Part shown: in pieces, positions 13,885 through 64,000 of the stretch
How positions within the stretch are numbered: the first letter of the stretch is position 1
Layout of the letters: each line of letters opens with the position of its first letter
Assembly (NCBI GenBank): GCA_958450365.1
Contig: CAUEEP010000922.1
Coordinates: 1,364,001-1,428,000, forward strand
DNA length: 64,000 nt
From: Mesorhabditis belari
Taxonomy: Eukaryota > Nematoda > Chromadorea > Rhabditida > Rhabditidae
Reading direction: 5' to 3'
The notes under the pieces: model-generated
What the model was told of the DNA's origin: nothing
The model's input: only the letters and a program-made list of their open reading frames with translations
Databases searched by the model: none
Program-made: the position numbers and the translations under genes

Positions 13885-14435
13885 GCGTTCCCAAGTGCAA
13901 AGTCCACTCCAGCAAAGTCCCAAAGTTGGTTCTTTCTTCGATTTTCTCGCATTTTCTCGCATTTCTATCTTATTTCATTCAATTTCTCACAAATTTTTCA
14001 AATCAAATCTTTCAAATTACCTTGAGAACTTTTCTGTATCGATGTGAGTCTTCTAATTGATCATTATAAAGTCATTTTTTTTTGATGCTTTAAAGCTCTA
14101 CCTTTGAGAAAATCAATCAACTTTTTGTAGATAGTAACACGGTTTTTTTTTTGAGGAATTCTTTATTAATTTGTATTTGAGAGAGATTTCTGATTAGAAA
14201 TTCGTTTAATTGCTCAATTGCTTAATTAAAAATATCAATTAGAAGATAAAAAAAAGTAAAATTTAAAGAAATTCACACATTTTCTAAGTTAAAATCATCG
14301 GAAAATCATTGAAAAATCGTTGAAAAAAAGGCGAATTTAAAATGAAGACTACGAATAAGAAGTAAATTAAAAGAAGTAAAGAAGTAAAAGTAAAATTTAT
14401 TGAAAAGTAATAATGTGATATAAACAAATGATACA

Positions 14436-21229: not shown

Positions 21230-22585
21230 CACCTCTGATTTTTTGATCTTTTGATCTTTTTATCTTTTTATCTTTTTATCTTTTTATCTTTTTGGTGTAA
21301 TTCCTTTTAGATACAGATTCTACTTTAACCAGGATTGAACATTGCCCTGATTTAGATCTTTTATTGTTCTTTTTTACCTAATATTTCTTAATAGTGTGCC
21401 AGATTACGTGCGTTTAATGGCTAAACTCCTCAGCATTCAGTGATGGTCAGTAAAAGCTAGTAAAGCCCAGTAAGCCAATGTTTGTGCTCATTTTGTGCTC
21501 AAAAAAACCCAAAACATCTCTTCTAGTGGATGCGAATTTGCAATTCTCGAAAGAAATGAAGAATTGAGTGTAGAAATGGGTGTGTTTATCAGTTCGGCTA
21601 ATTTCGGCACTTCGCAAAGTCTACCGCAAAGCGTGAGCTCTTAAAAAAAGGGAAAATTCAAATGTTAAGCCAAAAATTCTTCTTAAAACACGAGATTCTT
21701 TTGGTGTTTTTTTCAACTTTATCACTTAAACTTTTCAAATAATACTTAGATTTTGTGATTAGTCTTTTTAGCATAATAGTAATTAGTCTTTTTTTTATTT
21801 AAAAAAGACTTTTTTATTTAAAAAAGACTAATTACTATTATGCAATTAGTTGACTGAAATTTCGCTTTTCAAAAAAATAATTTCAAGAGATTTCAAGTAA
21901 TTTCAAGTAATTTCAAGAAATTTCAAATGAAAACTGTTTTCAAATATTTTAAAGAAGAAAAGGCTTTTCTGTTTTTTTAAATTATTAATACTATAGAAAG
22001 CACAGTGTTCTTACAAAAAAGATCACAAAAAATGAGTAATTTTCGAAAATTTCGAAGAATTCTTGAAGAAAATGGAAATGAAAACTCTCTTGGGAAAAGA
22101 AAATTTTGATTTGTATGAATTTTTTTAAAAAATTTTATAATTTTTCAATAGTTTTTTGTACTTTTAGTAATTTCAATTCAATTCTCACGTCATAATTTCT
22201 CTTTTCTTCCAGAGATCAAAGCTTTCGAGTTTTGCTCTCAATAAAAGAAAAAGATAACTTTTTCTCAATCTTTAAGAAAAGAGTTTTAACATTATTTAGG
22301 GTTCTATTATTATACTAGACAATGTTATTATTACACTGGAAAATGCTTTAAAATGTTTATATTCCATTCATTAAAATGTCTCCTTAAAAATTAAAGCCCA
22401 AGCCTAATCCAAAATCTCCAAGCTACAAGATTAAAGCTTTTCCATTCAATACCTAACGTTCTCCCGTTTAGAGCCCGTTTTAAGCTAATAAAGCTAATAA
22501 AGCTAATAAAGCTAATAAAGCTTAACCGAAATCTCTCTCCAATTTTGTGTCCTAAATTCCTACACTATTCGGTTAGAGAGATCTA

Positions 22586-23010
22586 TTGGGTTGATGGAAA
22601 AGTCCTTTGCGACTTTTTGGGAGAGTACCTTAAATTTGTCGAATTTTGACGTTTTATAGCTCATCCTAAAGCTGAATTCAAGACGGATCGATTGGTAAAA
22701 ACCGTTTTGAGATATCTCTTTTCTAAAAGTTTTTACAGCTATTTTAGTAAAGGGCGGCAGAGCCAAAAAATGGCTGTTTTCACGTTTCCTTAGTTTTCCG
22801 CGCGGAAACCTAGGCTAAAAACATGTGTTTTGTGATCAGCGTCAAAAATAACCCCTAGACACGCATTTTCACAATCTTAGCAAAAAAGTTTTGAAAGATA
22901 TTGTCACCGGTGGAAGTCGAACCAGCGACCCTCAGATCAATAGCCTTTCCGCCGCTTTTCGCGATTTTCCTTCGTTTTTCTCGTTTTTTTTTGTCGTACC
23001 CTAAAATTTA
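22586..23010. mobile_element. partial copy of the 53.2-kb mariner-like element, reversed
   Basis: From TTGGGTTGATGGAAAAGTCC, after a TA, the sequence follows the complement of 53922 down to about 53510, including the tRNA-like 3' piece (22905-22960). The transposase half and the second terminal repeat are missing. Confidence 0.8.
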
Positions 23011-27479: not shown

Positions 27480-28062
27480 TACCGTAAATACTGTAATATT
27501 ACCCACCCCCTTCGTACAGTCGCGTAGTCGCAAAAGTTTTTTAGTATTTCATTTTTTTCAAAGCGCCCGTACTTTCAAAAAATGCGTCTTTGGTATCAAA
27601 AAATAGCCCTGAATTTCAGCTATTTTTTGACACCTAAGCGCGCATTGTAGCATAAACCAGTGTCGAGAAACACTCGTTCAAAGCTAGACTACGCAACGCT
27701 CCGCAACGTCATTATGGGGATGGGGTACTATTACAGTATTTACGGCATATACGTCGCAGCCGATTATGAATGAGTGGATCTAGGAGCGTCCAATCATCAA
27801 TGTCCAATTTGAGGATTCGGAGGCGGACAGATTAGTTTTGGTGAAGGGAGAGGGAAGGGGGTTTTGTAAAAGCCTTGCGCCAGACGACGAGCGATTACGC
27901 GGCCGCACAAAGAGCACAAAGAATTTCAGGTATTTTTTGATACCTAAGCGCGCATTGTAGCATAAACCAGTGTCGAGAAAAACTCGTTCAAAGCTAGACT
28001 ACACAACACTCCGCACCGTCATTATGGGGCTGGGGTACTATTACAGTATTTACGGTAGCTAA
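27480..28062. mobile_element. family A composite, reverse of the 17.4-kb copy
   Basis: 27480-27746 is a full family A unit. About 27755-28062 matches the complement of unit one at 17.4 kb, including GCGGCCGCACAAAGAGCACA and, beyond its end, GCTAAATATGGCTCAAACGA. About 100 bases between the two units are unique to this copy. Confidence 0.8.
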
Positions 28063-38194: not shown

Positions 38195-38369
38195 TCCAGA
38201 AGTCGAATTGAGTTGATCGGGCGAGAAGATCAAGATGATTTTTCCCCAACTTTGCGCTTCCTTTTATTTGATCGTTAAATTCAAATTTGAGAGTATGCAA
38301 AATCACCGTACCCCACGTTCTGCGCTTGCTAAAGTGCGCCCTTTTGCTTATTGCATTCTTTTCATTCGC

Positions 38370-38881
38370 GGGAGTGGGACAAATGCAGCCTTTTGTTTTG
38401 CGCACCCGGACATTTGCGCACCTTTTTTTCCGCACCTTGCCCATTAGCGCACCTTTTTTCGGGTTTTAAAAAGCTAATACATATTAACCTAAAGCTCTAA
38501 AAAGCTAATATTAACCAATTTCTATGCCAAAAGTTGTTTTTCTAGGTAATTTTAGGGCGTAGAATCGAAATTTTGACATATCAGAGCTTGTGGAAACAAA
38601 CGGACGGAGTTATACAAAGAGAAAAATCGACAATTTTCTGTAATTTGATCTAGCCGTTTTGTTTTGATCTAGCGTCTTTCAAATTGGTTCCACACGCTCT
38701 GATATGTCAAAATTTCGATTCTACGCCCTAAAATTACCTAGAAAAACAACTTTTGGCATAGAAATTGGTTAATATTAGCTTTTTTAAAACGCAAAAAAAG
38801 GTGCGCTAATGGGCAAGGTGCGGAAAAAAGGTGCGCAAATGTCCGGGTGCGCAAAAAAAAGGTCGCATTTGTCCCACTCCC
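38370..38881. mobile_element. hAT-type foldback element, copy 1
   Basis: Terminal inverted repeats start GGGAGTGGGAC and continue as long arms containing GCGCACCCGGACATTTGCGC. The element is flanked on both sides by TCATTCGC (38362-38369 and 38882-38889), an 8-bp target duplication as made by hAT transposases. There is no coding capacity. It lies upstream of the basic protein gene. Confidence 0.88.
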
Positions 38882-40027
38882 TCATTCGCACAATTTCTTC
38901 CCTGTTCAAGCCTCGTTTTTTTAGCCATTACATCAGTTCCCATCCATTTGTATTTCTTATTTGTTTATGGATCAAAGCTGACGCTGAATGCTCCATAATT
39001 GTGTGGTACCGGATGATCCTGATGTCAAAAAGCCGGCGTTCATCTAACTGAATTTTGGAATTCTAGAAGATGACGAATATCCGAAATTTTTCGAAAAATG
39101 GAGGATTCTTTGGATGATATGGTTTTAAAGTTGATAGAAAACACGAATACATTGAAAATTAGTGCATCAAATGCATCAGGTGCATTTAGCTGGAGGAAAC
39201 AATTCATTTCACTGATTTGCCTGGGCAAATCAGTTTGTCTCATCAGAGATTTTTCTGTTGTGAAGCTTTCTTTACAACAGACAAATGAACTAGTGATTGC
39301 AGTCGAAATGGGAAATAGTTACAGGGAATTTTTGTAAAAAGAGCTTTCTCTGTTCCTCTAAAATCATTCGTTTTTCGAAAACTTGCCAACTTTCTCGACT
39401 ACCGTAATCCTGTCTCTAGCTTTCATCCAATCTTTCTACATTTAGTCTGATTCCGTGAGGGTTAACAAAGGATATCGAAGATCCAAAAAGGAAATTGATT
39501 TGATGAAAACTAGAGACAAGATGATCACGGTAGCTCTTGAAGGTTGAAACGTTTTAGAAAAAGTGTTACACAAGCGAATCATTCTGGTGAAAAGCGTGGA
39601 TTTGATTAAATGTGTTGCTGATATAATATGCAAACCCCTTTTCTATTTAGATGTTCTTGACGTTGAGCGTCACATTCTTCAAGAAAGTATAATGAAAAGA
39701 GATCTGCATAAAAGAAACTTTGGATGCGAAAAGCGGTAAGATTTGCGTAAAGGGGAATAGTTTAGGCCGCAACAAATTTGATAAAGAATACTTTTCTATG
39801 AATATAAAATTTTGAAAATATTGTAGACTTATTTACCAACCTAATATTACTGTACTAGGTATGCGCTTTACTGGCTCTGTACTACGTGGTTCTGGGTAAA
39901 GTAATCGACCTGCTACTGTAGTGGAGTAGTCACTATTAGAGTCTAATTTCAACCTAACGCTTTTTTTGTATTTCACGACAATTTTTTAAGTGTACTCCCA
40001 TTTTTAGTCAAGTTCTTTATCAATCAC
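38882..40027. other. spacer between hAT foldback and eIF5
   Basis: A 79-codon plus frame at 39098-39337 (MEDSLDDMVLKLIENTNTLK start) has a plausible start but no recognised domain or splice context; treated as unproven. Confidence 0.45.
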
Positions 40028-40033
40028 TTTATT
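40028..40033 (-). terminator. poly(A) signal AATAAA for eIF5
   Basis: AATAAA on the minus strand about 115 bases downstream of the eIF5 stop; the best-placed signal for this transcript. Confidence 0.55.
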
Positions 40034-40147
40034 TAAAAAAGGTGACAACACATGAAAGCTAGATAAAAATATAGGTAGATAGGTGAAAATAAAAAAGAAC
40101 AATAAATTATTGAGCCCAACAAAATTTGGGCAGCGGCACAAAAACTA

Positions 40148-41991
40148 TTAGATGTTCTCGATGTCGATTTCTTCTCCATTCTCGTCGTTGACAGCCGTGA
40201 TTTGCTTGTTGAGGCGCTCCGCGTTTTGCTGTGCCATCTGAGAGGTCTTTGCTCCATCAAACTAAAAAAATGATAAATTGTCTAGCAAGTTCTGAAAGTA
40301 AGCAACGCAACTAGTTAGAAGCACAAACCTTGATCTCATCGTCGTCGTCGTCATCGTCGTCGTCATCTTCAGTCTCTTCTTCGGCCTCCTTCAACCAATT
40401 GATCACTTTCTCACAAGCGGCAATGATCGCCTTTGACTCGGTTTTCGAGACAAACTTTGAAGTTGGCTAAATCAGGCTTTTATTTAAGAATAGAAAAAAG
40501 CCGACTTGTACCTTTTCAGCCCATTTCAGGATTGAGTCCTCATCACAAATGTCAGTATCGTAGAGTCCCTTGATGATGTGCGGTGCACGGACAAGAAGAA
40601 CGTCCTTGAACTTGGTGACCACCTGTTCGATTCCTCCGAGCAAGTAACGCTGAGCCTAAAGAAAATAGATTTTTTAGACAATTTAAATCAATCCATACCT
40701 TCTCATCATTGGCCGTAAATTGCAAGAGACATTTCTTGTACTTCTCGATTTGCTTTTCGGCAACAATTTGTTCATTGAATAGCACGTTAGCCAAGAGTAG
40801 AGTCGCCTTCTGCTTCAGCTCGAGTCTCTCGGCTTCATTGCGAAGTGCCTAAATATAAAAGTTTAAAATGCACATTTACCAATTTTAAATTAATAGCTAA
40901 GTAATTGGGTACCTTTCCATCGCCGATCTCGTTTTTCTTCTTCATGTCCTGGAAGTAGGTGTACAGCATCTCGAGACGTTCCTCAATCGATTTGTCCAGA
41001 TCGGCCGAAATGACAAGTTTGTTGATGCCGGATGTAAGTTTCTCCGACTCGACCTCTGGAGCCCAATCTTCGTCCTCCTCATCAGCGATTTGAACCTCAT
41101 CTCCAGACGAAGAGTCTTGCTAAAACTTTGCATTAGTAGGACATAAAAATTTGAGCGTTTGCGATTTAAAGTTTAAAGCTATTTCTCTCGGTAACTAAAT
41201 AAAGTGTTACCTTATTTTCATTGTTCTCGTCCTGAGCATCTGTTCCATTGGTGCCGTTTGTCTTGCTTGGCTTCTTCTCCTTGACCACTGAAAAGTCCAC
41301 CTCAATCTTTGGCGGATTCTTGACAATGAACGTAGCGAGACGATGACGTTGATCAATGATGTACATGTGACCACAAGCCTTGCATTTCGAGTTGATTTGC
41401 TGCTTGCGTACAGTCTAAATTTAAAAATATTTCAGAATATAAAACACAAACTTACAAGTAAAGTCTCAGGATTTTCGCAAGCCGGACAAAGCACGAATTT
41501 CTTGATAAAGCCGTCTAAGATGTCTTGAAGCTTGGCCGCATCGTGTTCTCCGTTGACGATGTAGCGTTCATTCTTCTGGTCGACTTGCGTCTGCGCTCCG
41601 AGCTCACAACCGAAGTATTTTGTTGGATCTAAAATCAAATAATGATATCTTTTAACTAATGAAATAATATCCTTTTAACCGGGTCTTGTTTAACCAAGGT
41701 TTAAACAAAAAAGTTAAACTCACAAGTAGGAGGACGCTCGAGAGCCTTGGCGATCTCGACCATATTAGAAATGACGGTTTTAATGCCATTTCCCTTCCCC
41801 TCGACCTTGGCTGAAATTTATTCTATTAGAAAGAGAACAAAAAACAAAACATAGGTAAGTAGTCAAATTTTGGGAACAAACCAAAACAAATTTTAATACG
41901 AAATACAGACACAAAATTTGAAACCTTGGATACGCGGCATCTTGTAGCGGTAGAATGGATCGGTGACGGAGCGGTTCACGTTGAGAGCCAT
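40148..41991 (-). CDS. eif-5: translation initiation factor eIF5, 9 exons, 427 aa
   Basis: Exons in gene order are 41991-41925, 41810-41724, 41628-41456, 41414-41211, 41119-40913, 40848-40699, 40655-40512, 40466-40329 and 40261-40148; all phases close on 1284 coding bases. eIF5 is the GTPase-activating protein for eIF2 in the 43S/48S pre-initiation complex. The N-terminal domain begins [20 protein letters not shown] and keeps Arg15, the arginine finger of the family. A zinc ribbon uses Cys99, Cys102, Cys120 and Cys123. An acidic linker around residue 180-200 leads to the C-terminal HEAT-like W2 domain, which has its aromatic/acidic region ([12 protein letters not shown]) and an acidic run of ten Asp. 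The protein ends EEIDIENI. Length agrees with animal eIF5 (about 430). Introns are mostly 40-110 bp. Nothing is truncated and I see no frameshift. Confidence 0.97.
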
Positions 41992-42453
41992 CTTTTAGGA
42001 TAGGTATAAATTCTTCTAAAGGCAAATGATTAAAAGTGAGCATAAGAGACCGCCAACCTTTGTCAAAAAAATTGTAGGTTTTTGTAGAATTCACAGTGCA
42101 TGCGCAACTGGAATTGTTGATGCAGGGAAATAAAAAGCTTGTAGCCTTCAGTTTCTTCCTTTTTCTCGACAACCGCCCTGAAGAGAGAAAAAAATTTATA
42201 CAGAATGTAAAATCTTAAAGGTTTAACGTCAGTTATAATGAAACGAACCCTGATCAGAAAAGCGACTATGCATGCAACGAAACGTTGAAAATGAAAGGTC
42301 CAACTTTTTCTCAGTCAAAGGCTGTCAAAATAAAATGATAATTGTTGTATTCTAATCTTTTTAACTTTACTTTTCAACGTTTTTAGATTTAAAAAATCTT
42401 ACCCTAAAAATCCTAAACTTACAAACTGCCCAATTTAAATCAAAAAGCATAAA

Positions 42454-42570
42454 ATGACCTTCTTGAGGGTTGTCAATCATAAAATTCCTGAGGACGGTGA
42501 TCCTTTCTTTTGGGCTGATGAACATGCACAGTCGGTGCACTCCGGTTTTCTCAATGTAGAGTTAACCTGA
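42454..42570 (+). CDS. small ORF of 38 aa, unrecognised, opposite strand also open
   Basis: The plus strand reads MTFLRVVNHKIPEDGDPFFW and ends HSGFLNVELT before a TGA. The minus strand over the same bases is also open (MFISPKERITVLRNFM, then NPQEGHFMLFDLNWAV up to a GTAAGT donor). The stretch is more G+C-rich than its surroundings and lies 460 bases upstream of eIF5. One of the strands may be an exon of a short gene; I cannot decide which, and both could be chance. Confidence 0.25.
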   Translation: MTFLRVVNHKIPEDGDPFFWADEHAQSVHSGFLNVELT

Positions 42571-44175
42571 AAATGAAATCTTAATCAAATCCAGAGAATT
42601 TGAAACGAAAAATGGGGAAAGCTATTGCCACGCGAAAAATCGAAGGAAACGTGTGGAAATTGTTGGCCAGAAGCAACGTCATTTCGTTAAGTGGGGAAAA
42701 GTGAAAGAAATAGGGGTCGGGATGGACGACCAATCGGAAATGAGCCGCCCGTTGCAATCGATCGCCACCATAGCACAGCAATTCCACGCGGGACCACGCA
42801 AAACTAGAAAGCCACAAAGCAAAACCAGAAAGAAATGAAAGAAATTGAGTGAAGGGTGGCAAAATATGGCGTGAAATTGTCAGAAGAAAAACGATAACGA
42901 TAGCCGTTGGCATTTCTGGGTCCGATTTGTGCAAGAGCATCAAAAATTTCAAAAAACGGGCAAAAGGGGCAAAAGGGGATTCAAAAAGAAACCTATAAAA
43001 TGCGAAGAAAGACAAATTGATTTTTGTGAACTGAAAATTTCCCTCGCGGCGCTTCTATTTATGCAATTTTTTTCTCATTTAAAGATGTTCTGCTAAACAA
43101 TTGAATGAAAGATTTTACAAAAATTTTTAGTAAATAAAAAACTTAAATAAGAGTTTTTGAACTGAACTGAAAACTTTTTTCTCATTTTATAGATTTACTA
43201 ACAATATCAATGGATAATAAAAACAAAAACGGCAGTCTCTAAAGTATATCAGCCATCAGCCTTTTAGAAAGCCAATCAGACCACAAAGCAGCGAACAAGG
43301 ATGAGAAATTTCTAGTTTCACAAAAAGCTACATATAAGGATTTAGCAAAAGAGAGTTTCTATAAAAGTTTCACACCGTATTTCAATATTGATTCACGAAA
43401 AGGGAAACGGGGGTTGGGTGGAGAAAACTATCGTCGTGGGAAGAGGGGAGCCGGTTTTCCGTTCAGAGCAGTGAGTGGGATGAAAAAAAGGAGAAAAAGG
43501 AGAAAAAGGGATCGGTGCGGGGAATGAAAAAGGACGGAAAAACGACGACGATGACAAGAAGGGAGAAGAAAATGAGAATAGACGAGAATGGAGAATGGTG
43601 TCGAGTGGATTGAAAGAGCCGTTTTTGAAGGGGAAAGGGGGCGGTGAGAAGAAGTGGACTGCTAAAGGGGAAAACATTGGGGAAGTTTGGTGTCATAATC
43701 TTCGTTTTGATACTTGAAAGGGTTGAAAGTCAATTAATAGAGATATCAGTATAGTACTCAATACAGTACAGTTTCTTCTTCCTTTAGAAGAAAGGAAGAA
43801 GGAACTTTACTTTACCTTCTTCCTCAATAAGGTCCAGTTTCTTCTTTCAACACTATTTCTAAAAGTTCTAACATTTACTGTAATGAAATGATGTCAATTT
43901 AATGATTGTAAATTCTGAGGTAATCTTTAAAAGTCTGAACGGATCTGTACCGTATTCCTCGTTTAAATCCTTATCTCATTTTGATTCACCAACAAAAAAA
44001 CAGCGACGAAATTGGCACCAATGACCAGCCTAGGTACATAACGGTTAGCCTAGCCGTAAACATAACAACTTGCTCATCAAATTGAATGTCTTAGCAAAGT
44101 TTTTTGGAGAAGCTCTCACCCTAAAGCATAAGATGGTTCAGTACAAGAAGCAACACTTCTGTAACGTAAACAACA
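42571..44175. other. 5' flank of eIF5 and purine-rich spacer
   Basis: A 144-codon minus frame (42581-43015) is hydrophobic and unrecognised. 43390-43680 is strongly purine-rich on the plus strand. No exon supported. Confidence 0.45.
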
Positions 44176-44446
44176 TACCGTAAATACTGTAATAGTACCC
44201 CACCCCCTTCGTACAGTCGCGTAGTCGCAAAAGTTTTTTAGTATTTCATTGTTTTTCAAAGCACCCGTACTTTCAAAAAATACGTCTTTGGTATCAAAAA
44301 ATAGCCCAGAGTTTCAGCTATTTTTTGATGCCTAAGCACGCATTGTAGCATAAACCAGTGTCGAGAAAAATGCGTCCAAAGCTAGACTACGCAACGCTCC
44401 GCACCGTCATTATGGGGGCGGCGGTACTATTACAGTATTTACGGTA
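44176..44446. mobile_element. family A inverted-repeat element, single unit
   Basis: TACCGTAAATACTGTAATAG to TACTATTACAGTATTTACGG, 271 bases, with the same interior as the 17.8- and 27.5-kb units and no reading frame. Confidence 0.85.
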
Positions 44447-45484
44447 AATAAAGCAACACTTCTGCTAGATCAAAAAGAACTTCGGATCTAAAAATGCCAA
44501 GATCTAGAGCTCTTAGATTGAATATCAAAACTTTATCGAAAAAGGATTCCCCAGAATGAATGTGGGTGACTGAGCACATCCCTTTACCCCAATGAAAGAA
44601 CCCTTCCATCTCTTCCATCCCATCACATCCCTACCCCTCCCTCCATTTCTCCTCTCACACCCATCAGCTTCTCCCATAATTGGATGCACACCGGACACAG
44701 CTCTTCTCTGTCTTTTTCCTATCGTCTTAAAAAAGTGAGGCACTCGTCAACCCCCGCATCCAAGCCATTCATATTTCTCCATCGAGCGATGAAGCGATGT
44801 CAGGAATAGGAATGATAGATAGATTGAGTTCTGGAAGGGTTTTAATTGTTTGGGGATAAAGAATGGACTATTGATCACCAAAATATAAAGTATAAAGCTG
44901 TATACTGAGCTCGTTTAGATCAAAGAAGAAACTTTAGTGTTTTTTTTGTTTATAATTGCAGTTTCTGTTTGGTTTGGTTTGGTTTTTTAACGGTTTGGAT
45001 TCATAATAAGTCTAACTAATGTTTTCAAATTGAATAACAGAATTTGCGCAGCTTGCTCGTTAATATACAAATTGATCTTTGATTTCTTACTTTATCATTG
45101 AATTTCAGTAGATTTTATCCCAAATTTGATATAGTTTTTAATAGTTTTGAGCTAGAATGAATAAATATAAACCTAATAAAGCCATCTATACTATTTTCCT
45201 TTTTGTTTATATCTAACTAAAGATACGCTGAGGGAATTTCCATTTATCATATTTTAGTTGAAAGGGCAATGATGCAAAGTACCTAAATAACAAAAACTAT
45301 TCCACTAGTCTATTTTTGAATTCAACACTAGAATTCAAAGTCCAAAAATGCAAATAGTGACTATTTTAAGCTTTCCCAGCTCAATGATCCAATAAAGACA
45401 ATAAAAGAATAAAAACAAAAAACAAAACGAAGCTCTTCTCTTTAACCAAGCTCAACTTCACAACAGCTCAATAACTCGTTTCGA

Positions 45485-45710
45485 AGAGTTCATTCGTTCA
45501 GTTCATTCGTTCTGTTCATTCGTTCAATCCATTCGTTCAATCCATTCGTTCAATCCATTCGTTCAATCCATTCGTTCAATCCATTCGTTCAATCCATTCG
45601 TTCAATCCATTCGTTCAATCCATTCGTTCAATCCATTCGTTCAATCCATTCGTTCAATCCATTTGTTCAATCCATTTGTTCAGTTCATTTGTTCAGTTCA
45701 TTCGTTTCCT
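45485..45710. repeat. 13-bp CATTCGTTCAATC minisatellite
   Basis: About 17 units; the flanking ones have TTCAGTT or TTTGTTC variants. Confidence 0.9.
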
Positions 45711-45922
45711 TTCAGAGAATTTCTCACCCCATTTTTTTCAGATAATTATGGGAATTCCCATCGCCTAATTGGAAGTCACACAAATTGAAAGGTAATTTGA
45801 TTTGAGAAGAAAAGAGAAGAATCATGAAGCAAAAAATTCTTTCAAAGATTCAGGAATCTAAAGTCCAAAGCGCGAAAAAAGAGCTATCCTAAAATTGGGT
45901 AAGTTTTGAAGTCTTGAAGTTG

Positions 45923-46590
45923 ATCGCGGCCGGGTGACGATAAAAATTTTTTTACGGCAACCACCTGTTTTTTTGTTTTAATATCGCTGATTTTATTATA
46001 AAAAGAATAAAAATCACCCGGTTAGAGTGATTTGATGGGTTTACAAATTTTTGGAGACACTGCAAGGCTTGGAGAAAAACAAGATCGTCACTCATCAGAC
46101 ACCTCAGCTAAAAGGCACCTATTTGAGAAAACTAAAAGCATAAGCGACCACAAATGAAAAAAGATCTAATTGTGTCAATCAAAGCGCTGAAGACGTCCTA
46201 CGATGGAGGAGATCCAGTCACTTTTGGTGAAGATGCGCTGGAAATTGATAAGATAGGAAGCCGATTTGTACTGCTGTACTTGAGCGAAGATGAAAGTGAG
46301 CAAGAGGAAGAATTATAGATTAACAATTTATTTTTATTACTTTTTGTGCTTTTTATTTAGTTTTTAAATTTATCTGCAACTAAAACTCAATCGATCTAGA
46401 CTGTGCTGAGGTGTCTGATGAGTGACGATCTTGTTTTCCTCCAAGCCTTGCAGTGTCTCCAAAAATTTGTAAACCCATCAAATCACTCTAACCGGGTGAT
46501 TTTTATTCTTTTTATAATAAAATCAGCGATATTAAAACAAAAAAACAGGTGGTTGCCGTAAAAAAATTTTTATCGTCACCCGGCCGCGAT
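45923..46590. mobile_element. foldback element D: 186-bp arms around a 296-bp centre with a small ORF
   Basis: Left arm 45923-46108 and right arm 46405-46590 are near-perfect inverted copies starting ATCGCGGCCGGGTGACGATA. The centre contains the 54-codon frame at 46154-46318. I see no clear target duplication. Such long arms suggest a MULE-like or foldback transposon. Confidence 0.85.
46154..46318 (+). CDS. 54-aa unrecognised ORF inside foldback element D
   Basis: It begins MKKDLIVSIKALKTSYDGGD and ends with an acidic tail (LSEDESEQEEEL). An in-frame stop lies 18 bases upstream of the ATG, so the frame is closed on both sides. Base composition is richer in G+C than the surroundings, as an exon would be. 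It may be a captured host exon or a remnant of the element's own gene; I recognise no domain and give it modest weight as a real protein. Confidence 0.35.
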   Translation: MKKDLIVSIKALKTSYDGGDPVTFGEDALEIDKIGSRFVLLYLSEDESEQEEEL

Positions 46591-47623
46591 TAATACCCCC
46601 CCCCCCCTTTAATTATAACAGAAACAAAACTGAAATATCTAGATTAAATCTAGCGATATCTAGATTAGATCTAGCAATATCTAGCAATGCAAATAGTGAC
46701 TATTTTAAGCTTTCCCAGCTCAATAATCCAAAATCTAGCAATATCCAGCTGTAACTTTAAAAAAAAACTTACCAAATCGATCAGTCAAACGTATTTCGAA
46801 ACACCCAAAGAGCTTAAACAGCCACAAAATGAACGGGAGAGTTCAGCCAGCGTTTTCTTCTTATCACAAAGAGAAAAATCAAAGAGAGATTGGGAAAATT
46901 TTGTGAAAAACGAGAAAAAGAGTGCTACATCTCGTTCTTAAAAGAAAAGCCTTTTTTTTGCTTTTTTCGTTTCCTCGGGAAAAATGGCGGAGTCTATCTG
47001 GGTCGACCGCTTTTCATTTGGTGTGTTTAGATTGGGTTTGGGGGAAAATATTGATAGAAATTGATTTAGGAAGTTCTTGAAGTTGTTAAGCTATTAAAAC
47101 GCTTCAATTCTCAAGCAGATCTTTGAAAACAATGAAAACAAGTATCAGACTTTTATTTGAGCACATCACTTTGTGATTTTAGCTGAAAATTTGAGGTATT
47201 GATTTGAAAATTGTTTGAAAGGTAGTGTTTTTTTTTTGAAATCATGAAATCACTGCCAGAAATCATGATCAGCTTTTTGATTTCTTACAAACCAACCCTC
47301 AATAACTTTTAAACCTCAATAAAAAAGTTTTCAAGGTAAAAATCATCGTTGACATCACCAAAGACTTTGAAAAGCTTAAAATAAATAAAATAATTCAAAA
47401 TAAGTAAAGAGAAAGCTCAAATTCCATTCTAAAGCTTTAAAAAAAAGCAAACGATTTTTTTTCAGGCTATTTCGAAAGATTTGTGACTCAAAAAGCATCT
47501 TTTTTTTCTCAAATTTGTGACTAATTTGTTTGCAAAAGGGACTTTTTACAAACATTGATCATCAAAATATTTGTGTCTCTTTAAATTTTCACAAAATTGA
47601 ATTGAATTGAACAACAACAAAAC

Positions 47624-47752
47624 AACAAACAATGCAACTGCTTAGTTACTGCTTAGTTAAGCCCTCAAACAATGCAACTGCTTAGTTACTGCCTAGTTAA
47701 GCCCTCAAACAGTGCAACTGCTTAGTTACTGCTTAGTTAAGCCCTCAAACAT
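47624..47752. repeat. 43-bp tandem repeat, three copies
   Basis: Unit AACAATGCAACTGCTTAGTT followed by ACTGCTTAGTTAAGCCCTCA, three copies with two substitutions. Confidence 0.9.
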
Positions 47753-47828
47753 CAGAGCTTTCAATAGGGGAAAGGGCAAAGTAGCATTTTTTAATGAAAT
47801 GAGAAACTTTATACTTAAAGTTTGAGTA

Positions 47829-47901
47829 CTGTAGAAGTATTGTAGGAGTACTGGAGGAGTACTGTAAGAGTACTGTAGGAGTACTGTAAGAGTACAGTAA
47901 T
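47829..47901. repeat. GTACTGTAGGA short repeat
   Basis: Six to seven 11-bp units with AGGA/AAGA variants. Confidence 0.82.
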
Positions 47902-48156
47902 CGTTCCTGAATTCTAAAGAAGCTAACAATAAGTCAGAGACTTGGTCACTTGATTATAAAAGAGAACGATTTCATCATTCAAAAATTCGATTGCACAACA
48001 CAACGTTTGGAAAGAGTTTCTCTTGCTCTTGTTGGGAAATACAAATCACTAAAAAACTTGACTTTCTAAACAATCAAACTGAACTCAGAACTCATGCTAA
48101 ACAATATGCAAAGCCAAAGCCAAAGCGTACCGACGCTTAGTTAAAGCAAACGCTAG

Positions 48157-48736
48157 GGGAGTGGGATAAATGCGATTTTTTGCGCACTTTTTTCGCTTTT
48201 TAGAAAAGCGCTAAAAAGCTAATATTAACCAATTTCTATTCCAAAGAGTTGTTTTTTTTCCTGGGTAATTTTAGGGCATAGAAAACTAAACTTGATTACT
48301 GTTGACAAACACTAATGTTGACATATCAGAGCTATCATACCTAAGCGATATCAGAGCCATATCAGACATATCAGAGCTATCATACCTATCATACCTATCA
48401 TACCTATCATACCTATCATACCTAAGCCCTAAGCAAACGAACAGAGTTATCCATCGGGAAAAATCGACAATTTTCTGCAATTTGACCTATCCGTTTTTTA
48501 TCTTTCCAATTGTTTTCACAAGCTTTAATATGTTAAAATTTAAATTCTATGCTCTAAAATTACCCAGAAAAAGCAACTTTTAAAAGAAAAATTGGTTAAT
48601 ATTAGCTTTTTAGAGGTTTTTTAAAATGTGAAAAAAAGTGCGCTAATGGGACGGAAAAAAAACGCCAAAAAGTGCCAAAAAAACGTGGGCAAATGTCTGG
48701 GTGCGCAAAGAAAAAGGTCGCATTTATCCCACTCCC
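48157..48736. mobile_element. hAT-type foldback element, copy 2
   Basis: The same ends (GGGAGTGGGA...TCCCACTCCC), flanked by AACGCTAG and AACGTTAG (8 bases, one mismatch). The left arm has acquired a TATCATACC short repeat at 48318-48428. Confidence 0.8.
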
Positions 48737-48812
48737 AACGTTAGATATGAGCTTAAATAAGTATTAAGATTAGTTGTTAAGCTCTCAATGCTGTCATTTT
48801 TTAGAGATGTTG

Positions 48813-49607
48813 CATTGGTGATAGTCTTAACCCCTTTCATTTACCATTTTCCATTTACCATTTACCATTTACCATTTACTCACCGGATAATTTATGGCAT
48901 CCGCGTAGAGACGATTTGAACGATGGCTGAATTTGCAAAGAAATTTGCAAAAAACGACGCGAATTTAACCGGGAATTCGATGGGAATTCCAGGGAAAATG
49001 AATGAAACGATGAAAAATGAATTTCCGCACAAAATATGCAAAACCTCCCGGAACGCCTCTTTTAGTCTCTCGAAAATCGGGGTGATCAAAAAAGTATTGA
49101 TCGAGGGAATAGAGATTGACCAAATTAGGCTGTCTTCTAAAAGATGTAAAGTACACTGTGAGAAGGACACTGTAACAAAGAAAGTTGGAGATCACTTACA
49201 CTTGCTGACTACACTGCTGACTACACTACTGACTACACTGCTGACTACACTACTGACTACACTACTGACTACACTACTGACTACACTACTGACTACACTG
49301 CTGACTACACTTGCTGATTACACTGCTGACTTACACTTGTTGATCGAGCTTTTCATAGTAGTTTATCTGATTCGAATAGATTCAAACTATACTTTTGAGT
49401 TGATATCTTGAAAATCTAAGAACAGTGGTGAGACTGTCATTTTGTTATTGATGTCATTGATCATTGATATCATTGATCATTGATATCATTGATCATTGAC
49501 TATTTGAATGTACGATTCTTAACATTGGTGATAGTCTTAACCCCTTTCATTTACCATTTACCATTTACTTACCGGATAATTTATGGTATCAGCGTAGAGA
49601 CGATTTG
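48813..49607. repeat. 85-105-bp direct repeats flanking a 600-bp segment
   Basis: Left copy 48813-48918 and right copy 49523-49607 share GGTGATAGTCTTAACCCCTT, ACCGGATAATTTATGG and CGTAGAGACGATTTG. The left copy has extra CATTTAC units. The segment between opens with a 162-codon frame whose second half is the minisatellite below; the first 90 codons resemble nothing I know. Confidence 0.7.
49200..49335. repeat. 12-bp GACTACACTGCT minisatellite
   Basis: About ten units with CTA/CTG variants. Confidence 0.9.
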
Positions 49608-49924
49608 TCGACATTGATAAAATACTGCCGAGCGAGGCGAGTCGAATTGATTGACAATATTTGGAAATCCTTCGATTTGCAGATTTGAATCCGGCATTTT
49701 AAAAATTGGTCTAAAAAATTTAAAAGTTATTCAGCTAGATAGCTAGATAAGCTAAAAGATATTCAGCTATCTAAACAATTTCCTGAGTCTCAAAAATGAT
49801 AGCGCTCACTTCAGATATTGAAATTCATTTGTAAACTTTCAACGAGACGAATTTTAAAGTTTAAAGTCATCAAAGATTAAAGTTGTTCTCCAAAGAGCCT
49901 AGTTTAAAGTTGTTCTCCAAACAT

Positions 49925-50462
49925 CTTGGAGTTTGTTCCTATCTTGGTTCTTCCTGGTTCGAAGTCTTCGACTTACTTGTGCTGGTTGCACTCTAGCCTC
50001 TAGCACTCCTTTCTCTGACCGTCTCTGCCACTCTTTTGCTCCACCTTGTTGTTGGTCTTCCGATGGGCCTCTTCTGGTCTCGTGGTTGCCACTCTGTGAT
50101 CCATATTGTCCATGCGAGGACTGTCGTCTGTTCTGTCGTCCATTCTTCTGGCTACGTGGCCAGCCGAGTCTTTTTCTCTCGATCACTTCCACTGGATCTC
50201 TGAGTTCCGAGAGCCGACGCATATCCACACTTCTTAGGTCTTGGTCGAGCTGCGTCTTCCTATTGTGCCCGAGGAGGTTCCTTTCAAGGACTCAATTCGT
50301 CGTTCTCAGGGCTCGTTCGGTGGTCTGTGTCGTGGCCCAGGTCTCTGCCCCGTAGCAGAGTGCCGGGAGGACAGTGCTGTCGAAGAGGTGTGCCCGAGTC
50401 CTCTGGTGATTCTTGAGTATCTTTGTGACTTCTTTGATTCTTCCTAGTGTTTTCTTTGAGAC
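49925..50462 (-). mobile_element. 5'-truncated non-LTR retrotransposon (RTE-like) with a 65-bp target duplication
   Basis: Minus-strand reading gives remnants of a reverse-transcriptase C-terminus: CYGAETWATTQTTERALR, then SVDMRRLSELRDPVEVIERK and RLGWPRSQKNGRQNRRQ, with frame breaks. The segment is bracketed by identical 65-base direct repeats at 49860-49924 and 50463-50527, as a target-site duplication would be. Only the last approximately 540 bases of the element are present, typical of abortive target-primed reverse transcription. Confidence 0.75.
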
Positions 50463-50939
50463 TTTAAAGTCATCAAAGATTAAAGTTGTTCTCCAAAGAG
50501 CCTAGTTTAAAGTTGTTCTCCAAACATGTGATCTTGTTAACAAATCTTTCCCCATTCTTCTTTTTCTCAATCAGTTTGCCGATGGGCGAATCTCGTGATT
50601 TCTCTCAATCTTTCCCTGTTTTCATTTCCCAATTTGGCAAAAAGAAAAAAAGAAATACTCTCACAATGATCATTTTGAGAGGAAAAGTGATAGAATTAAT
50701 GATATCAGAGATTTCTTTAGTGGTGAAACATTTTCATCGTGATTGGGTTTGTTTATTTGTGACTTCTCATCGATATTTTCGTTTACTCGTTTAGTTGGCT
50801 TTGATTTGAGCTTTGATTTTGTTTTAAAAGTCCATTAAACACTTACTCGTTTGGTTTTTTCATCAAAATTACTTCAAATTTTGTATTTCTCAAGTCAAAA
50901 GCAATTCCCAATGAATTGGAAAGATAATTTGAAGTGTTG

Positions 50940-51146
50940 AAACGACTTCAAAGCACTTTAAAACACTTCAAAGCACTTTAAAACACTTCAAAGCACTTCA
51001 AGCCACTTCAAAGCACTTTAAAGCACTTCAAAGCACTTCAAAGCGCTTCAAAGCGCTTCAAGCCACTTCAAGCCACTTCAAAGCGCTTCAAGCCACTTCA
51101 AAGCGCTTCAAAGCACTTCAAAGCGCTTCAAGCCACTTCAAACCAC
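50940..51146. repeat. 10-bp AAAGCACTTC minisatellite
   Basis: About 20 units with GCG, GCC and TTTA variants. Confidence 0.9.
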
Positions 51147-51673
51147 AAGCATAAACTCTAGTGTCAGTATTGTTTTCTTTTTCTCTCAATCAAACTAGTT
51201 ACTTTCTTTTTTTACTGAGTTTTCCTTTTCTTTTTCTTTTCAAGAATGGCCGGTTACCACAAAATGATGTCGACCTTGATGTAAAAGAGAAAAGAGAAAA
51301 GAGAATCTCTTCAAAATCTCTTCAAAATTTTCTCTTTTTAAATGCTCACTTCATTTTCTCAGTAATTCTCAATTCTTTTTCCACAAATTTCACAATCACT
51401 CTCACTCAAAGAAGAAATTTTTCTAAATTTTCTTCTTTCTAGCTCAACAATGGGGTTTCCATTTCTTTTTTAGGAAATTTTAGGAAATTTAGGAGATTTT
51501 TTCCTCAATCTCTTTGTCTCTTAGTTTTTAAAAGTCATTTTTCTATTTGAATTTCAATTATCGCTCAATTATCGATAAAATTAGCTTTCTAAAAGGTATC
51601 TAAAACTACCGTAATCTTTCGTAATCATAATCTTTCGTAGTCGTAATCTTTCGTAACCTTTCGTAATCGTATA

Positions 51674-51853
51674 GAGCTTTCAGTTAAGCCAGTTAACTTT
51701 CAGTTAAGCCAGACTTTCAGTTAAGCCAGTTACCTTTCAGTTAAGCCAGTTACCTTTCAGTTAAGCCAGTTAACTTTCAGTTAAGCCAGTTAACTTTCAG
51801 TTAAGCCAGACTTTCAGTTAAGCCAGTTAACTTTCAGTTAAGCCAGTCAATCA
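51674..51853. repeat. 20-bp TTTCAGTTAAGCCAGTTAAC repeat
   Basis: About nine units, two of them shortened to 15 bases. Confidence 0.88.
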
Positions 51854-52111
51854 AATTCGATAAAAGATCACAAGACTCAGTAAATGATACAAAAATTGAG
51901 CTGATCCAAGAGAAACTGACAGGATTACAGTAGCTAGATACGGCTGGATTACGGTAGAATTACGGTATAGAAACTGACAGGATTACGGTAGTAAATACCT
52001 TTTAGAAATTTTACCTTAGCGTCTTTTAGTCTACAGAACTTACCCTACAGTCGACAAAGCATAAGAAATTCCTTTCCTAGGCCTACTGTAACTATTGTTT
52101 ACAAAATTATC

Positions 52112-52391
52112 TACCGTAATACCTCTAATAGTAGCGCCACCCTCCTCCCCGTATCGTCGCGCAGTCGCAAAAAATTTTTTACTAAATCATTTTTTTCTAA
52201 ACGCCCATAATTTCTAAAAGTACATCTTTAGTATCAAAAAATAGCCCTGAATTTCAGCTTTCATTTGATACTTAAGCGCATACTGTAGCATAAACGGATG
52301 GCGAGAAAAATGCGTTTAAAGTTAGAGTACGCGAGGCTCCACCGTCATTATGGGGGGGGGGGGGGGCGCTACTATTAGGAGTATTACGGTA
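52112..52391. mobile_element. family A inverted-repeat element, diverged copy with a 16-G run
   Basis: Ends TACCGTAATACCTCTAATAG and CTACTATTAGGAGTATTACG are recognisably family A but changed. The interior keeps GTCGCAAAA and CATTATGGGG. A run of about 16 G lies next to the right end. Confidence 0.75.
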
Positions 52392-52869
52392 TCGTGATTT
52401 CTTTGTAACTCATTTTTCTTTGCTTTTGATTCATTTTCACTAATTTTCTCTTTATTTGATGAGTCAAAAGCTCAAAAACCAAGAAAAAAGAGTGTTTCTT
52501 TTGCTCTTTTCTCATCAAGGGTCAGTCTTTCACTGAAAACATTGAAGGTTATTGCTCTCTAGAGCTTTTCAATGAATAAAACATTGATTAAAAGGTAGTA
52601 TTAGTTTCATTTTAGGATTAGTATTAGTTTCATTTTACTAGATTTTACAATTTCTATCTTCATTTTGTTATAATCTTGTTCTAATTTTGAAGTTTTTCTG
52701 TAAATGGTCAGTAAACAACTGCTTCGAGAGGCGTTTCTATGGTTTTTCCCTACAATTTTCCTATTTCTTTTTGTTTTTTTGCTTGAAATGCTTGAATTTC
52801 AATAATATTTCAATAATAACTTGACATTTTAAACTTTTCCTTTAAAATTCAGGATTTTTCTACTGAAAA

Positions 52870-55800
52870 ATGCCTGAAGAGCCGAGCACCGCGGCCGACA
52901 TTGAGGTGGCACAGGTAATTGACAATTGACAGATTGACAATCTATTGACAATGGCAAAAATCTATTAACAAGCTTTTAAAAACGCTTTTAAAATTATTCA
53001 CTAATATTTTGGATAAAATTTTTACTAGTTACTGGTATTTCTTGCAAAAAAAAAACTCGATTATCTATCATTTTTAGGTCCGTGAAGCCGTGAAAGATTT
53101 GATTCACCCAAAGTATGACACATATTTCAACATTCTTCGGTGGATTCAAGTTTGTCATTAATATTGTCATAATATTGGGTTGGTGGAAAAGTCCTTTCCG
53201 ATTTTTTGGGAGAGTACCTTAAATTTGTCGAATTTTGACGTTTTATAGCTCATCCTAAAGCTGAATTCAAGACGGATCGATTGGTAAAAACCGTTTTTTC
53301 AGGAATGTCGTGTCAAGTTGAATCGGAGGAGCACCAGCGGCACCTGTTTTTGTATGCATTCAACCGAAAACTCAATGCCGCACAGGCTCATCGAGAGATT
53401 ACTGACGTTTATGGACCCGATTTCGTGACCGAACGAACTATCCGGAATTGGTTTCAACGATTTCGTGAAAAATTCCTGAAAAAAGCCTTCTAACAACATC
53501 AAAAAAATGATAAAACAAAAAAAACGAGAAAAACGAAGGAAAATCGCGAAAAGCGGCGGAAAGGCTATTGATCTGAGGGTCGCTGGTTCGACTTCCACCG
53601 GTGACAATATTTTTCAAAACTTTTTTGCTAAGATTGTGAAAATGCGTGTCTAGGGGTTATTTTTGACGCTGATCACGAAACACATGTTTTTAGCCTAGGT
53701 TTCTGCACGGAAAACTAACGAAACGTGAAAACAGCCGTTTTTTGGCTCTCCCGCCCTTTACTAAAATAGCTGTAAAGGCTTTTAGAAAAGAGATATCTCA
53801 AAACGGTTTTTACCAATCGATCCGTCTTGAATTCAGCTTTAGGATGAGCTATAAAACGTCAAAATTCGACAAGTTTAAGGTACTCTCCCAAAAAATCGCA
53901 AAGGACTTTCCCATCAACCCAATATCAAAAAATTTCGCGAAACGTGCAATATTCCATGATTCAGGGTACCAATCACAATGTACCAAAAGCGATTCACATG
54001 TTGAGAAAGCATTTGAAATGGAGAAAAGAGAAGCGATTGGACACTGACTCGTCAACGCTGCAATCGTGCAAGGTTTGGCTTGGGGAAAAGAGCAAAATCT
54101 TCAGTTCAAGCTTGCCTCATTGAGGTTTCTACCTCAATGATTCATCTTGATTCAATGACTCAATGATTCATCTTGATTTTTGAAATTCCAGATCGCTTCC
54201 GATCACGCTCCATTGTGTATCATTAAGCCAACGAATCCCGACGCGGATCACATTTTAGTCGTTGATCAAGCCGGAAAAATCGGTACTAACCAATAAAGTT
54301 CTTATTAGTGTTAATTCAATAATTACTAGAGTTCATTGGTATAAAATTTTACCCCCCGGATATTGAAAGACCCCCCCCGGATACTCCACAAGTACCAGTT
54401 CATTTACTAAAGACATCAGCCTAAGCCTAAGCCTTAGACAAACTATCCTACTCAAAGCGCTATTCATTTTTGGGAAAGTTTCCATTTAATTAGCCTAATT
54501 TTGGGCACAGAAATTACAAGCCTAAATCAAAATGATAGCAAATTTAGCTGATTTGATGAAAACTGATTGATAAAGATGAAAATCTTCACCAAAAATGAGC
54601 AAAGATATGTGAAAGAAAGATTCCTTTAGTTGCCAGAAAATTTTCAGAAGTTAATTTATTTTTAAAAGAAGCAAACAAGCGAACATAAAGCTCTCTCAAG
54701 AAAAATTGCTCTCCGGAAGCTCTCTGAAACTAATTGAGTTAAAAATTTTGTTCAATAAGTCAAAAAATGAGTTTAAAAGTAAAAGTTCGATAGTAAAAAT
54801 AAGATAGGAAAATTTAAAAGTTGAGTATAAATTGTATAAATTGCGAAAAGGGGAGTGGGACAGATGCGACCTTTTTTTTGCGCACCCGGACATTTGCGCA
54901 CCTTGCCCATTAGCGCACCTTTTTTCGCGTTTTCAAAAAGCTAATATTAACCAATTTCTATTCCAAATGTTGTTTTTCTAAGTAAGAGAAAAACTTCTAG
55001 GTTTTTGAGGGTGTCGAATTCAAGTTTTGACATAACAGAGCGTGTGGAATCAATTTGAAAGACGCTAGATCAAAACAAAACGGCTAGATCAAATTACAGA
55101 AAATTGTCGATTTTTCTCTTTGTATAACTCCGTCCGTTTGTTTCCACAAGCTCTGATATGCCAAAATTTCGATTCTACGCCTTAAAATTACCTAGAAAAA
55201 CAACTTTTGGAATAGAAATTGGTTAATACTAGCTTTTTAGAGCTTTAGGTTAATATTAGCTTTTTAAAACGCGAAAAAAGGTGCGCTAATGGGCAAGGTG
55301 AAGAAAAAAAGGTGCGCAAATGTCCGTGTGCGCAAAAAAAAGGTCGCATTTGTCCCACTCCCGCGAAAAGCGTAATTCAATTTCGTTTCTAGATGTTGGC
55401 GGTGTGTTGAAAAGTGTCCAACCGACCGACTATATTCATCAAAAATATCGAAATATCGAGAAGATTTTATCGATTTTGATGGAGGTATGATTGTTGAGCG
55501 TACCATGAATCAATTTCCTAGATGGAAGCCCGATTGGGACGTCAGTGCTACGCGTATTACATCTTTGACCTCGATGGGTTGAGCTTCGATCCGACAATGG
55601 TTGGAACTGTGACAGGTTTGTCTTTTAGAAGTACAGGTGAATTTTGATACAAGGAATTGCAAGCGATTGGTCGAAGCGTTCGTTGTATCGGAAAGAATAC
55701 GTATATCCTATAGAATATCGAAATTCGTTGTATAGAAATAAATCACCATTGGCTTTTTGACTTCGCGATAGTTTTTATAACGAATTTACTTTGAAAAGAA

Positions 55801-63233: not shown

Positions 63234-64000
63234 TTAAAGCTCTTTTTTCTCATTTCCTGTGACTCCATCTTGTAAGTTTTTAAAGAGTTTTTGTGGTAGA
63301 TTGTCAAAAGCAAAAGATCTAAATGATGATTGATGAAAATAAGTTAAAAAATGAGCTAAAGCTAAAAGCTAAAGCTAAAGCTAAGAGCTAAAGCTAAAGC
63401 TGAAAGCTAAAGCTAAGAGCTAAAAGCTAAAGCTGAAAGCTGAAAGCTAAAGCTAAAGCTAAAACTAAAGCTAAAATCTAAAGGCTAAAGCTAAAGCTAA
63501 AAGCTAAAGCTAAAGGCTAAAGGCTAAAGCTAAGAGCTGAAAGCTAAAGCTAAAGGCTAAAGCTAAAGCCGAAAGCTAAAAGCTAAAGCTGAAAGCTAAA
63601 GCTAAAGCTAAGAGCTAAAGCTAAAAGCTAAAGCTAAGCTGAACTTGAGCCTGAGCCTGGGCCTGAGCCTGCGCCTAAGCCTGAGCCTGCACCTAAGCCT
63701 AAGCCTAAGCCTAAGCCTAAGCCTAAGCCTAAGCCTAAGCCTAAGCCTAAGCCTAAGCCTAAGCTAAAGCTGATTTCTCAGTTTACTCACGTGAAAGCAA
63801 TGAAAATCACTCTTTCAGTCACATTGTTGTTGATTGATTTCAGGAAATGATCAATAATTTCCTCAACTGATGAATAGATCTAAAAGATAAACACAAATTA
63901 AACTAAGCAGCTTAAACTATTCTTGACTGACGATTCTCGACTGACCTCAAATCGACAATCTTCTTCACATTGTCTCCTAATTCTCTCAATATCCCAATGA
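63234..64000 (-). CDS. 3' part of an unrecognised gene entering from the right edge
   Basis: Three exons: beyond 64000 to 63946, 63879-63791 and 63318-63234 (stop). Each is bounded by clean GT and AG sites (TTTTAG, TTTAG acceptors) and the phases (0, then 2) join without a stop. The visible C-terminus has about 75 residues, beginning HWDIERIRRQCEEDCRFE, continuing through EEIIDHFLKSINNNVTERV and ending with a Lys/Glu-rich tail (GNEKKEL). I do not recognise the family; the two Cys and the amphipathic EEIIDHFLKS stretch are all that stands out. The intron 63319-63790 is filled by GCTAAA-type and perfect telomere-type repeats. A poly(A) signal follows at 63217-63222. Confidence 0.65.
63345..63640. 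repeat. AAAGCT-type hexamer repeat in an intron of the right-edge gene
   Basis: Units AAAGCT with AAGAGC, GAAAGC and AAGGCT variants over about 300 bases, continuing into the telomere-type tract. Confidence 0.9.
63692..63763. repeat. interstitial telomere repeat, 12 perfect CCTAAG (TTAGGC) units
   Basis: Seventy-two bases of perfect repeat, preceded from about 63645 by degenerate GCCTGA units. TTAGGC is the established nematode telomere unit. Coding exons lie on both sides, so this is not a chromosome end. Confidence 0.93.

What the first reader, a model, noticed from the sequence alone, without database searches (positions are those of the whole stretch)
38370..55372. Three-copy hAT-type foldback family, each with an 8-bp target duplication
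Copies at 38370-38881, 48157-48736 and 54851-55372 share GGGAGTGGGAC ends and long arms. The flanks are TCATTCGC/TCATTCGC, AACGCTAG/AACGTTAG and GCGAAAAG/GCGAAAAG. Eight-base duplications are the hAT signature, and two of three are still perfect, so the insertions are recent. The whole internal sequence is foldback, with no coding capacity, so an autonomous partner must exist elsewhere.
Basis: partly seen in the sequence, partly recalled or inferred. Interest (0 to 1): 0.75.

Follow-up and report, generated by a model that had tools for sequence, protein, structure and literature searches.

The report
MULE-type foldback transposons, not hAT

Summary
Three foldback elements (38370-38881, 48157-48736, 54851-55362) share GGGAGTGGGAC-type ends and sit in 8-bp duplications, two of them perfect.

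The genome (207.6 Mb, probably Mesorhabditis belari) holds 2741 + 2730 such ends; the reversed-pattern control gives 0. Where found, perfect target duplications are 8 or 9 bp: 9 and 5 of 18 pairs taken in contig order. One locus has a near-identical inverted copy that lacks the element and keeps one copy of the 8 bp.

hAT fails: 15 partial domain hits, none with these ends in its fetched locus. One 3256-bp element (C136) with the same ends and a perfect 8-bp duplication contains a spliced MULE transposase gene, with one frame break. Two more same-ended elements (C691, C709) keep pieces of that gene, and one (C318) is just its two tails joined.

Best reading: non-autonomous foldback elements moved in trans by a Phantom/Muta/Tm1-like MULE. 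Mosquito Muta1 also makes 8- or 9-bp duplications. The origin of the palindromic interior is open.

The parts
38370..38881 (+). Foldback non-autonomous element, copy 1 (512 bp), inverted GGGAGTGGGAC ends
   Evidence: also present on homologous contig C669 (L002), 99.7% over 3.5 kb
38362..38369 (.). Target duplication TCATTCGC, left
38882..38889 (.). Target duplication TCATTCGC, right
48157..48736 (+). Foldback element, copy 2 (580 bp), more diverged, ends GGGAGTGGGAT
   Evidence: its position is covered by the C669 alignment
48149..48156 (.). Target duplication AACGCTAG, left
48737..48744 (.). Target duplication AACGTTAG, right (7 of 8)
54851..55362 (-). Foldback element, copy 3 (512 bp), reverse orientation relative to copy 1, 88.7% identical to it
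   Evidence: also present on C669
54843..54850 (.). Target duplication GCGAAAAG, left
55363..55370 (.). Target duplication GCGAAAAG, right

Best explanation
The three elements are non-autonomous, MITE-like foldback members of a Mutator-like (MULE) DNA transposon family, close in type to Phantom/Muta/Tm1, in a nematode genome that is most probably Mesorhabditis belari. A longer element with the same ends contains a spliced MULE transposase gene. The transposase most likely binds the shared 54-92 bp ends, cuts the element out and re-inserts it at a staggered cut of 8 or 9 bp, which leaves the duplications. Shown: shared ends, 8/9-bp duplications on short elements and on gene-bearing ones, a MULE domain in one same-ended element and gene remains in two more, an internally deleted derivative, and one empty site. 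Inferred: trans-mobilisation, the cut-and-paste chemistry, and whether any copy is still active.
For: (1) The 21-base end occurs 2741 + 2730 times with up to 2 mismatches; reversed control 0 + 0. (2) Of 40 element pairs, 26 have a perfect 8-bp and 4 a perfect 9-bp duplication, none a perfect match at 4-7 or 10-12 bp. Of 18 further pairs from the exact-end listing, 9 are perfect 8 bp, 5 perfect 9 bp, 1 is 8 of 9, 3 have none. (3) L024: an inverted copy of the flank 0.7 kb away, 206/209 identical, lacks the 495-bp element and has one GGATTCAG where the filled site has two. (4) L076 (C136): 3256-bp element, same ends, perfect CTAAACTC duplication, with ten exon-like blocks between splice-like signals; the C-terminal piece scores 33.5 bits to PF10551 MULE, cut-off 27.6. 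(5) C691: same two ends, perfect 9-bp TGTTTTATG; C709: same two ends, GTAAAAAT/GTAAAAAC; both keep parts of the same gene. C59 and C713 keep the gene or its 3' part and one such end. (6) C318:195895-196367 is the two tails of the MULE element joined (88% and 97%), perfect GTTCAGGT. (7) Window copies 1 and 3 match the MULE ends over 54-92 bp at 84.6-96.3%; copy 2 matches with one end, 60-64 bp at 87.5-90%.
Against: Only one element (C136) has both ends and the MULE domain, and its gene has a frame break in exon 6. C691, 2416 bp, lacks the middle exons with the MULE domain, C709 keeps only pieces, and the other gene copies examined (C59, C713, C706, C650) have lost or altered one or both ends. 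The palindromic interior of the window elements is not in the MULE element, so internal deletion alone does not explain it. No transcript or activity data exist. PF10551 gave 0 hits genome-wide (11 candidates), probably because introns split the domain. The FLYWCH-like finger is by eye only (0 Pfam families). P0001, a protein predicted from the C59 copy, scores 25.2 bits, below the cut-off, though its record lists PF10551.
Confidence: 0.88

Rival explanations
1. hAT non-autonomous elements, moved by a hAT transposase.
For: The larger share of perfect duplications is 8 bp (26 against 4 of 40; 9 against 5 of 18), and PMC2874221 gives 8 bp for hAT (passages).
Against: A clear minority of 9-bp duplications. 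The 15 hits to the hAT dimerisation domain are all partial, and none of their 15 loci, with about 1.5 kb on each side, holds a matching end. hAT terminal repeats are given as 5-27 bp; these are far longer. The same-ended element with a transposase domain is a MULE. Caveat: genes are matched exon by exon, so partial hits may also reflect introns.
Confidence: 0.02
2. Merlin non-autonomous elements. Merlin is described with terminal 5'-GG and 8- or 9-bp duplications, and the genome has Merlin genes with open frames.
For: PMC8101967 passages give 5'-GG ends and 8- or 9-bp duplications. 58 Merlin-domain matches here, many with open frames of about 300 aa.
Against: None of the 30 Merlin loci fetched (of 58 matches) is enclosed by these ends. 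The end-like matches that recur beside Merlin genes lie inside the coding zinc ribbon. In 5 of 6 Merlin loci looked at, a different G-rich repeat flanks the gene. The Merlin matches beyond those 30 were not read.
Confidence: 0.04
3. A second, unseen autonomous element with the same ends but with the palindromic interior of the window copies; it, not the C136 type, is the true source. (If it were another MULE this overlaps with the best explanation.)
For: The interior of the window elements does not match L076; more distant MULE relatives are present in many copies.
Against: No such element was found. In one distant MULE relative that was read, no such end was found within 5.5 kb (L099). But the list of ends shows 100 of 5471 places, so most long elements were never inspected.
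Confidence: 0.15

Closest known systems
Tm1, Mutator/Foldback family of Meloidogyne root-knot nematodes (PMC3169594; parts 1-3 of 8 and passages read)
   Same: Composite foldback terminal repeats; a transposase-coding class (2.6 kb, 7 exons, FLYWCH + MULE) and a MITE-like class of about 430 bp; 8-10 bp duplications in 45 of 53.
   Different: Terminal motifs differ (CGGTTAA/CCTACCC against symmetric GGGAGTGGGAC); Tm1 is mostly 9 bp, this family mostly 8; Tm1 has 39 and 22 copies in two genomes, here there are thousands of ends; a histone-hairpin class was not looked for.
Muta1 and other Aedes aegypti MULEs (PMC5225508; abstract and passages read)
   Same: Reinsertion in yeast gives either 8 or 9 bp duplications; long terminal repeats with subterminal tandem repeats; non-autonomous derivatives.
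   Different: Insect host; its sequence was not compared; activity is shown there and not here.
Phantom clade of MULEs (PMC6446971; passages read)
   Same: Animal MULEs, 8-10 bp duplications, FLYWCH or SWIM finger or none.
   Different: Clade membership was not tested by phylogeny here.
Merlin superfamily (PMC8101967; passages read)
   Same: Terminal GG and 8- or 9-bp duplications.
   Different: Transposase of another family; the Merlin genes looked at in this genome are flanked by other repeats.
hAT superfamily (PMC2874221; passages read)
   Same: 8-bp duplications of no fixed sequence.
   Different: A 9-bp class here, much longer terminal repeats, no hAT domain found with these ends.

Membership tests
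MULE (Mutator-like) | MULE transposase domain (PF10551) in an element with these ends | tested here: met
   Met in one element, C136: 33.5 bits, cut-off 27.6, C-terminal piece. C691 and C709 have the same ends but only parts of the gene
MULE (Mutator-like) | Target duplication of 8-11 bp | tested here: met
   Perfect matches at 8 or 9 bp only; a minority of pairs show none
MULE (Mutator-like) | Long terminal inverted repeats | tested here: met
   L076 arms of 94 nt at 82% plus a 39-nt end at 97%; long foldback in window copies
MULE (Mutator-like) | Catalytic DDE residues | tested here: inconclusive
   DGTF, TDFE and NATHEAFN motifs seen by eye; not tested by alignment or structure
Phantom/Muta clade | Phylogenetic position within the clade | not tested
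   No tree was built; placement is by structure and duplication length only
Phantom/Tm1 | FLYWCH zinc finger | tested here: inconclusive
   C-x4-C ... H-x-H seen by eye; 0 Pfam families on that piece at E up to 10
Tm1 | Terminal motifs CGGTTAA and CCTACCC | tested here: not met
   Ends are GGGAGTGGGAC-type at both sides
hAT | hAT transposase (PF05699 domain) in a same-ended element | tested here: not met
   15 partial hits, 0 of 15 loci with these ends
hAT | 8-bp target duplications only | tested here: not met
   Perfect 9-bp in 4 of 40 and 5 of 18
Merlin | DDE_Tnp_IS1595 gene enclosed by these ends | tested here: not met
   0 of 30 fetched loci, of 58 matches
P element | P transposase in a same-ended element | not tested

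The most novel reading that the evidence does not exclude
A nematode MULE whose transposase makes both 8- and 9-bp staggers has driven a very large family of passengers, many of them long palindromes whose interior is not its own, and it also carries foreign DNA: one 1506-bp element with a perfect 8-bp duplication holds a 28S rRNA piece and a mariner-like piece, a Pack-MULE-like capture in an animal.
Probability: 0.3. Interest if true: 0.4.

Novelty: new member of a known kind. Interest (0 to 1): 0.22.

Why it matters
It corrects a superfamily call that rested on duplication length alone: 8 bp does not mean hAT, since a Phantom-type MULE such as Muta1 makes 8 or 9 bp. It would extend the Tm1/Phantom type from plant-parasitic Meloidogyne to a rhabditid nematode (Mesorhabditis belari by the contig-length match; lineage), with far more copies. 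Thousands of inverted-ended elements, many of them near-palindromes, are also a likely source of rearrangement and assembly error in that genome (inference).

Tried and rejected
hAT: searched and rejected. Merlin: first looked supported because one search found end-like matches beside Merlin genes; one search showed that these lie inside the coding zinc ribbon, so they were discarded. PF10551 profile on the genome: 0 hits; replaced by protein and DNA searches. L099, a distant MULE relative, was read to see whether it shares the ends: none found in 5.5 kb. L078 (C88) has both ends but no duplication (0 of 8). Empty site: 37 joined flanks were compared with the loci then held; one (L024) gave an empty site at 99%; the only other junction-spanning match was L024 to the window at 78%. 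On contig C669 copies 2 and 3 are present, so it gave no empty site. A Pfam match for the mariner-like piece in L077: none; support is a weak match to Sleeping Beauty transposase (E 0.01) and 73-81% DNA matches at other places. The 28S piece is firm (RF02543, 134 bits). Among the 40 of 116 candidates scored, no other place carries both pieces together. No paper on such elements in Mesorhabditis showed in the listings (open-licence PMC papers only; 8 of 51 shown; none of the Mesorhabditis papers was opened).

Counts. One search scored 40 of 1602 candidates for copy 1; all 40 places matched. One search was given 41 pairs; L016 had no end pair and was dropped, leaving 40, which include repeats (L001 is the window's copy 1; L002, L004, one of L005/L006, L017 and L019 share flanks with other rows). 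Counted by hand without these, 34 remain: 22 perfect 8 bp and 3 perfect 9 bp. One search took the facing pairs of ends less than 1 kb apart among the 100 listed places, except C88, which is with no duplication; with it the set would be 9, 5, 1 and 4 of 19. In one search C30/C49 and C121/C122 share flanks; without these, 16 remain: 9 perfect 8 bp, 4 perfect 9 bp, 1 with 8 of 9, 2 none. The 22 copies are 20 of the 30 loci L001-L030 plus window copies 1 and 3; shared-flank copies and truncated ones were left out, and all are close matches to copy 1, so the divergence is a low estimate. The duplications of C691, C709 and C318 were read by eye.

Full report
What was checked. The flanking 8-mers are as stated, two perfect and one 7 of 8. 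Copy 1 is a foldback along nearly its whole length: -234 kcal/mol as single-stranded DNA against a mean of -58.7 for 100 shuffles. Copies 1 and 3 are 88.7% identical in opposite orientation; copy 2 is a more distant relative.

The genome. G000 has 207,617,015 bases in 714 contigs. A protein search with the transposase piece found one protein, named as from Mesorhabditis belari, on a contig of 515,694 bases; contig C59 of G000 has that same length and carries a copy of the gene. The name is thus an inference from one protein and one contig length, though a strong one; (GCCTAA)n near the window's right end fits the nematode telomere unit, which I recall rather than found in a call.

Family size. 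The 21-base end occurs 2741 times forward and 2730 times reverse with up to 2 mismatches; the reversed-pattern control gives 0 and 0. With copy 1 as query, 40 of 1602 candidates were scored and all 40 places matched at 85-100%. The assembly seems to hold both haplotypes at least in part: C669 matches C698 at 99.7% over 3.5 kb around copy 1, so the count per haploid genome is lower.

Target duplications. In 40 pairs, 26 are perfect at 8 bp and 4 at 9 bp; no length from 4 to 7 or 10 to 12 gives a perfect match. Most of those pairs were chosen by similarity to copy 1. A second set of 18 pairs, taken in contig order from the exact-end list, gives 9 perfect 8 bp, 5 perfect 9 bp, 1 with 8 of 9, and 3 with none. 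Both lengths are real. At L024 an inverted copy of the flank, 206 of 209 identical, lacks the element and keeps a single GGATTCAG. That is an empty site and direct evidence for insertion; it was the only one among 37 joined flanks compared with the loci held.

The partner. hAT was tested first: 15 partial hits to the dimerisation domain, none with these ends within its locus. Merlin gave 58 matches and for a moment seemed to carry the ends, but the recurring matches are coding sequence of the zinc ribbon, and in 5 of 6 loci looked at another G-rich repeat flanks the gene. Two long elements from the list of ends were then read. One, on C136, is 3256 bp with the same ends and a perfect 8-bp duplication, and contains ten exon-like blocks between splice-like signals. 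Its C-terminal piece scores above the curated cut-off for the MULE transposase domain (33.5 against 27.6 bits). This copy has a break of frame in exon 6. Searches with its two tails and with its protein found relatives. C691 (2416 bp) has both ends and a perfect 9-bp duplication but lacks the middle exons with the MULE domain. C709 has both ends, 7 of 8 duplicated bases, and pieces of the gene. C59 keeps the gene in good part and its 5' end; C713 keeps its 5' end and the 3' part of the gene; C706 and C650 keep the gene in good part, with ends lost or altered. C318:195895-196367 consists of the two tails alone, with a perfect 8-bp duplication: an internal-deletion derivative, the usual origin of MITEs. 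So the gene and these ends go together at several places, but only C136 has everything.

Link to the window. Copies 1 and 3 share 54-92 bp of their ends with the MULE element at 84.6-96.3% identity, copy 2 shares 60-64 bp of one end at 87.5-90%. Their palindromic interior is not in it. So the ends, which a transposase would recognise, are common, and the interior is of unknown origin. This is the main gap. A second autonomous relative remains possible, since only 100 of 5471 end positions were listed.

Mechanism. The best-supported reading is movement in trans by the MULE transposase, by cut-and-paste with an 8- or 9-bp stagger. In the mosquito MULE Muta1, reinsertion in yeast gave either 8 or 9 bp (PMC5225508, abstract and passages). 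MULEs as a whole are given 8-11 bp, and the Phantom group, with which Muta is placed, 8-10 bp (PMC6446971, passages). Tm1 of root-knot nematodes has coding, MITE-like and other elements with composite foldback ends (PMC3169594, parts 1-3 and passages). Membership in MULE is supported; membership in Phantom was not tested by a tree; membership in Tm1 itself fails on the terminal motifs.

Age. The three window insertions are also on C669, so they probably predate the split of the two contigs. Twenty-two related copies lie 1.0-5.3% from their majority sequence, a moderately recent burst, with the bias that they were close matches. Perfect duplications alone do not show that the family is active now.

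Verdict. This is a new member of a known kind.

Noticed in passing
L077:1001-2506 (G000:C152:135293-136798): A 1506-bp element with the same ends and a perfect 8-bp duplication carries a 28S rRNA piece (RF02543, 134 bits) and a mariner-like piece. Among the 40 of 116 candidates scored no other place has both together.
   Followed up: partly
window 53172-53925 and 22584-22991: Another high-copy repeat with an end of the type TATTGGGTTGRTGGAAAAGTC; of 4751 candidates for the wider stretch 40 were scored, most matching here at about 85-97%. The end recalls mariner elements (from memory).
   Followed up: no
window 17609-18049, 27501-28055, 44199-44443, 52139-52383: A further dispersed repeat family in direct and inverted copies, 63-98% alike.
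   Followed up: no
window 45920-46593: A foldback with 189-nt arms 99% complementary, other ends.
   Followed up: no
window 13133-14060: Near-perfect 13-bp tandem array of several hundred bases that creates long repetitive ORFs in three frames.
   Followed up: no
window about 63690-63776: Interstitial (GCCTAA)n array, the nematode telomere unit as I recall it.
   Followed up: no
L032, L034, L035, L037, L054: Merlin genes, several with long open frames, flanked by G-rich composite repeats of GGATCTTAAAATTTTACCCCCCC type.
   Followed up: partly
L099:897-1796 (G000:C709:815900-821400): Part of a distant MULE relative with inverted repeats of similar TTGCGCAA-rich make-up but none of the present ends; equal-scoring last-exon matches occur at many places.
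   Followed up: partly
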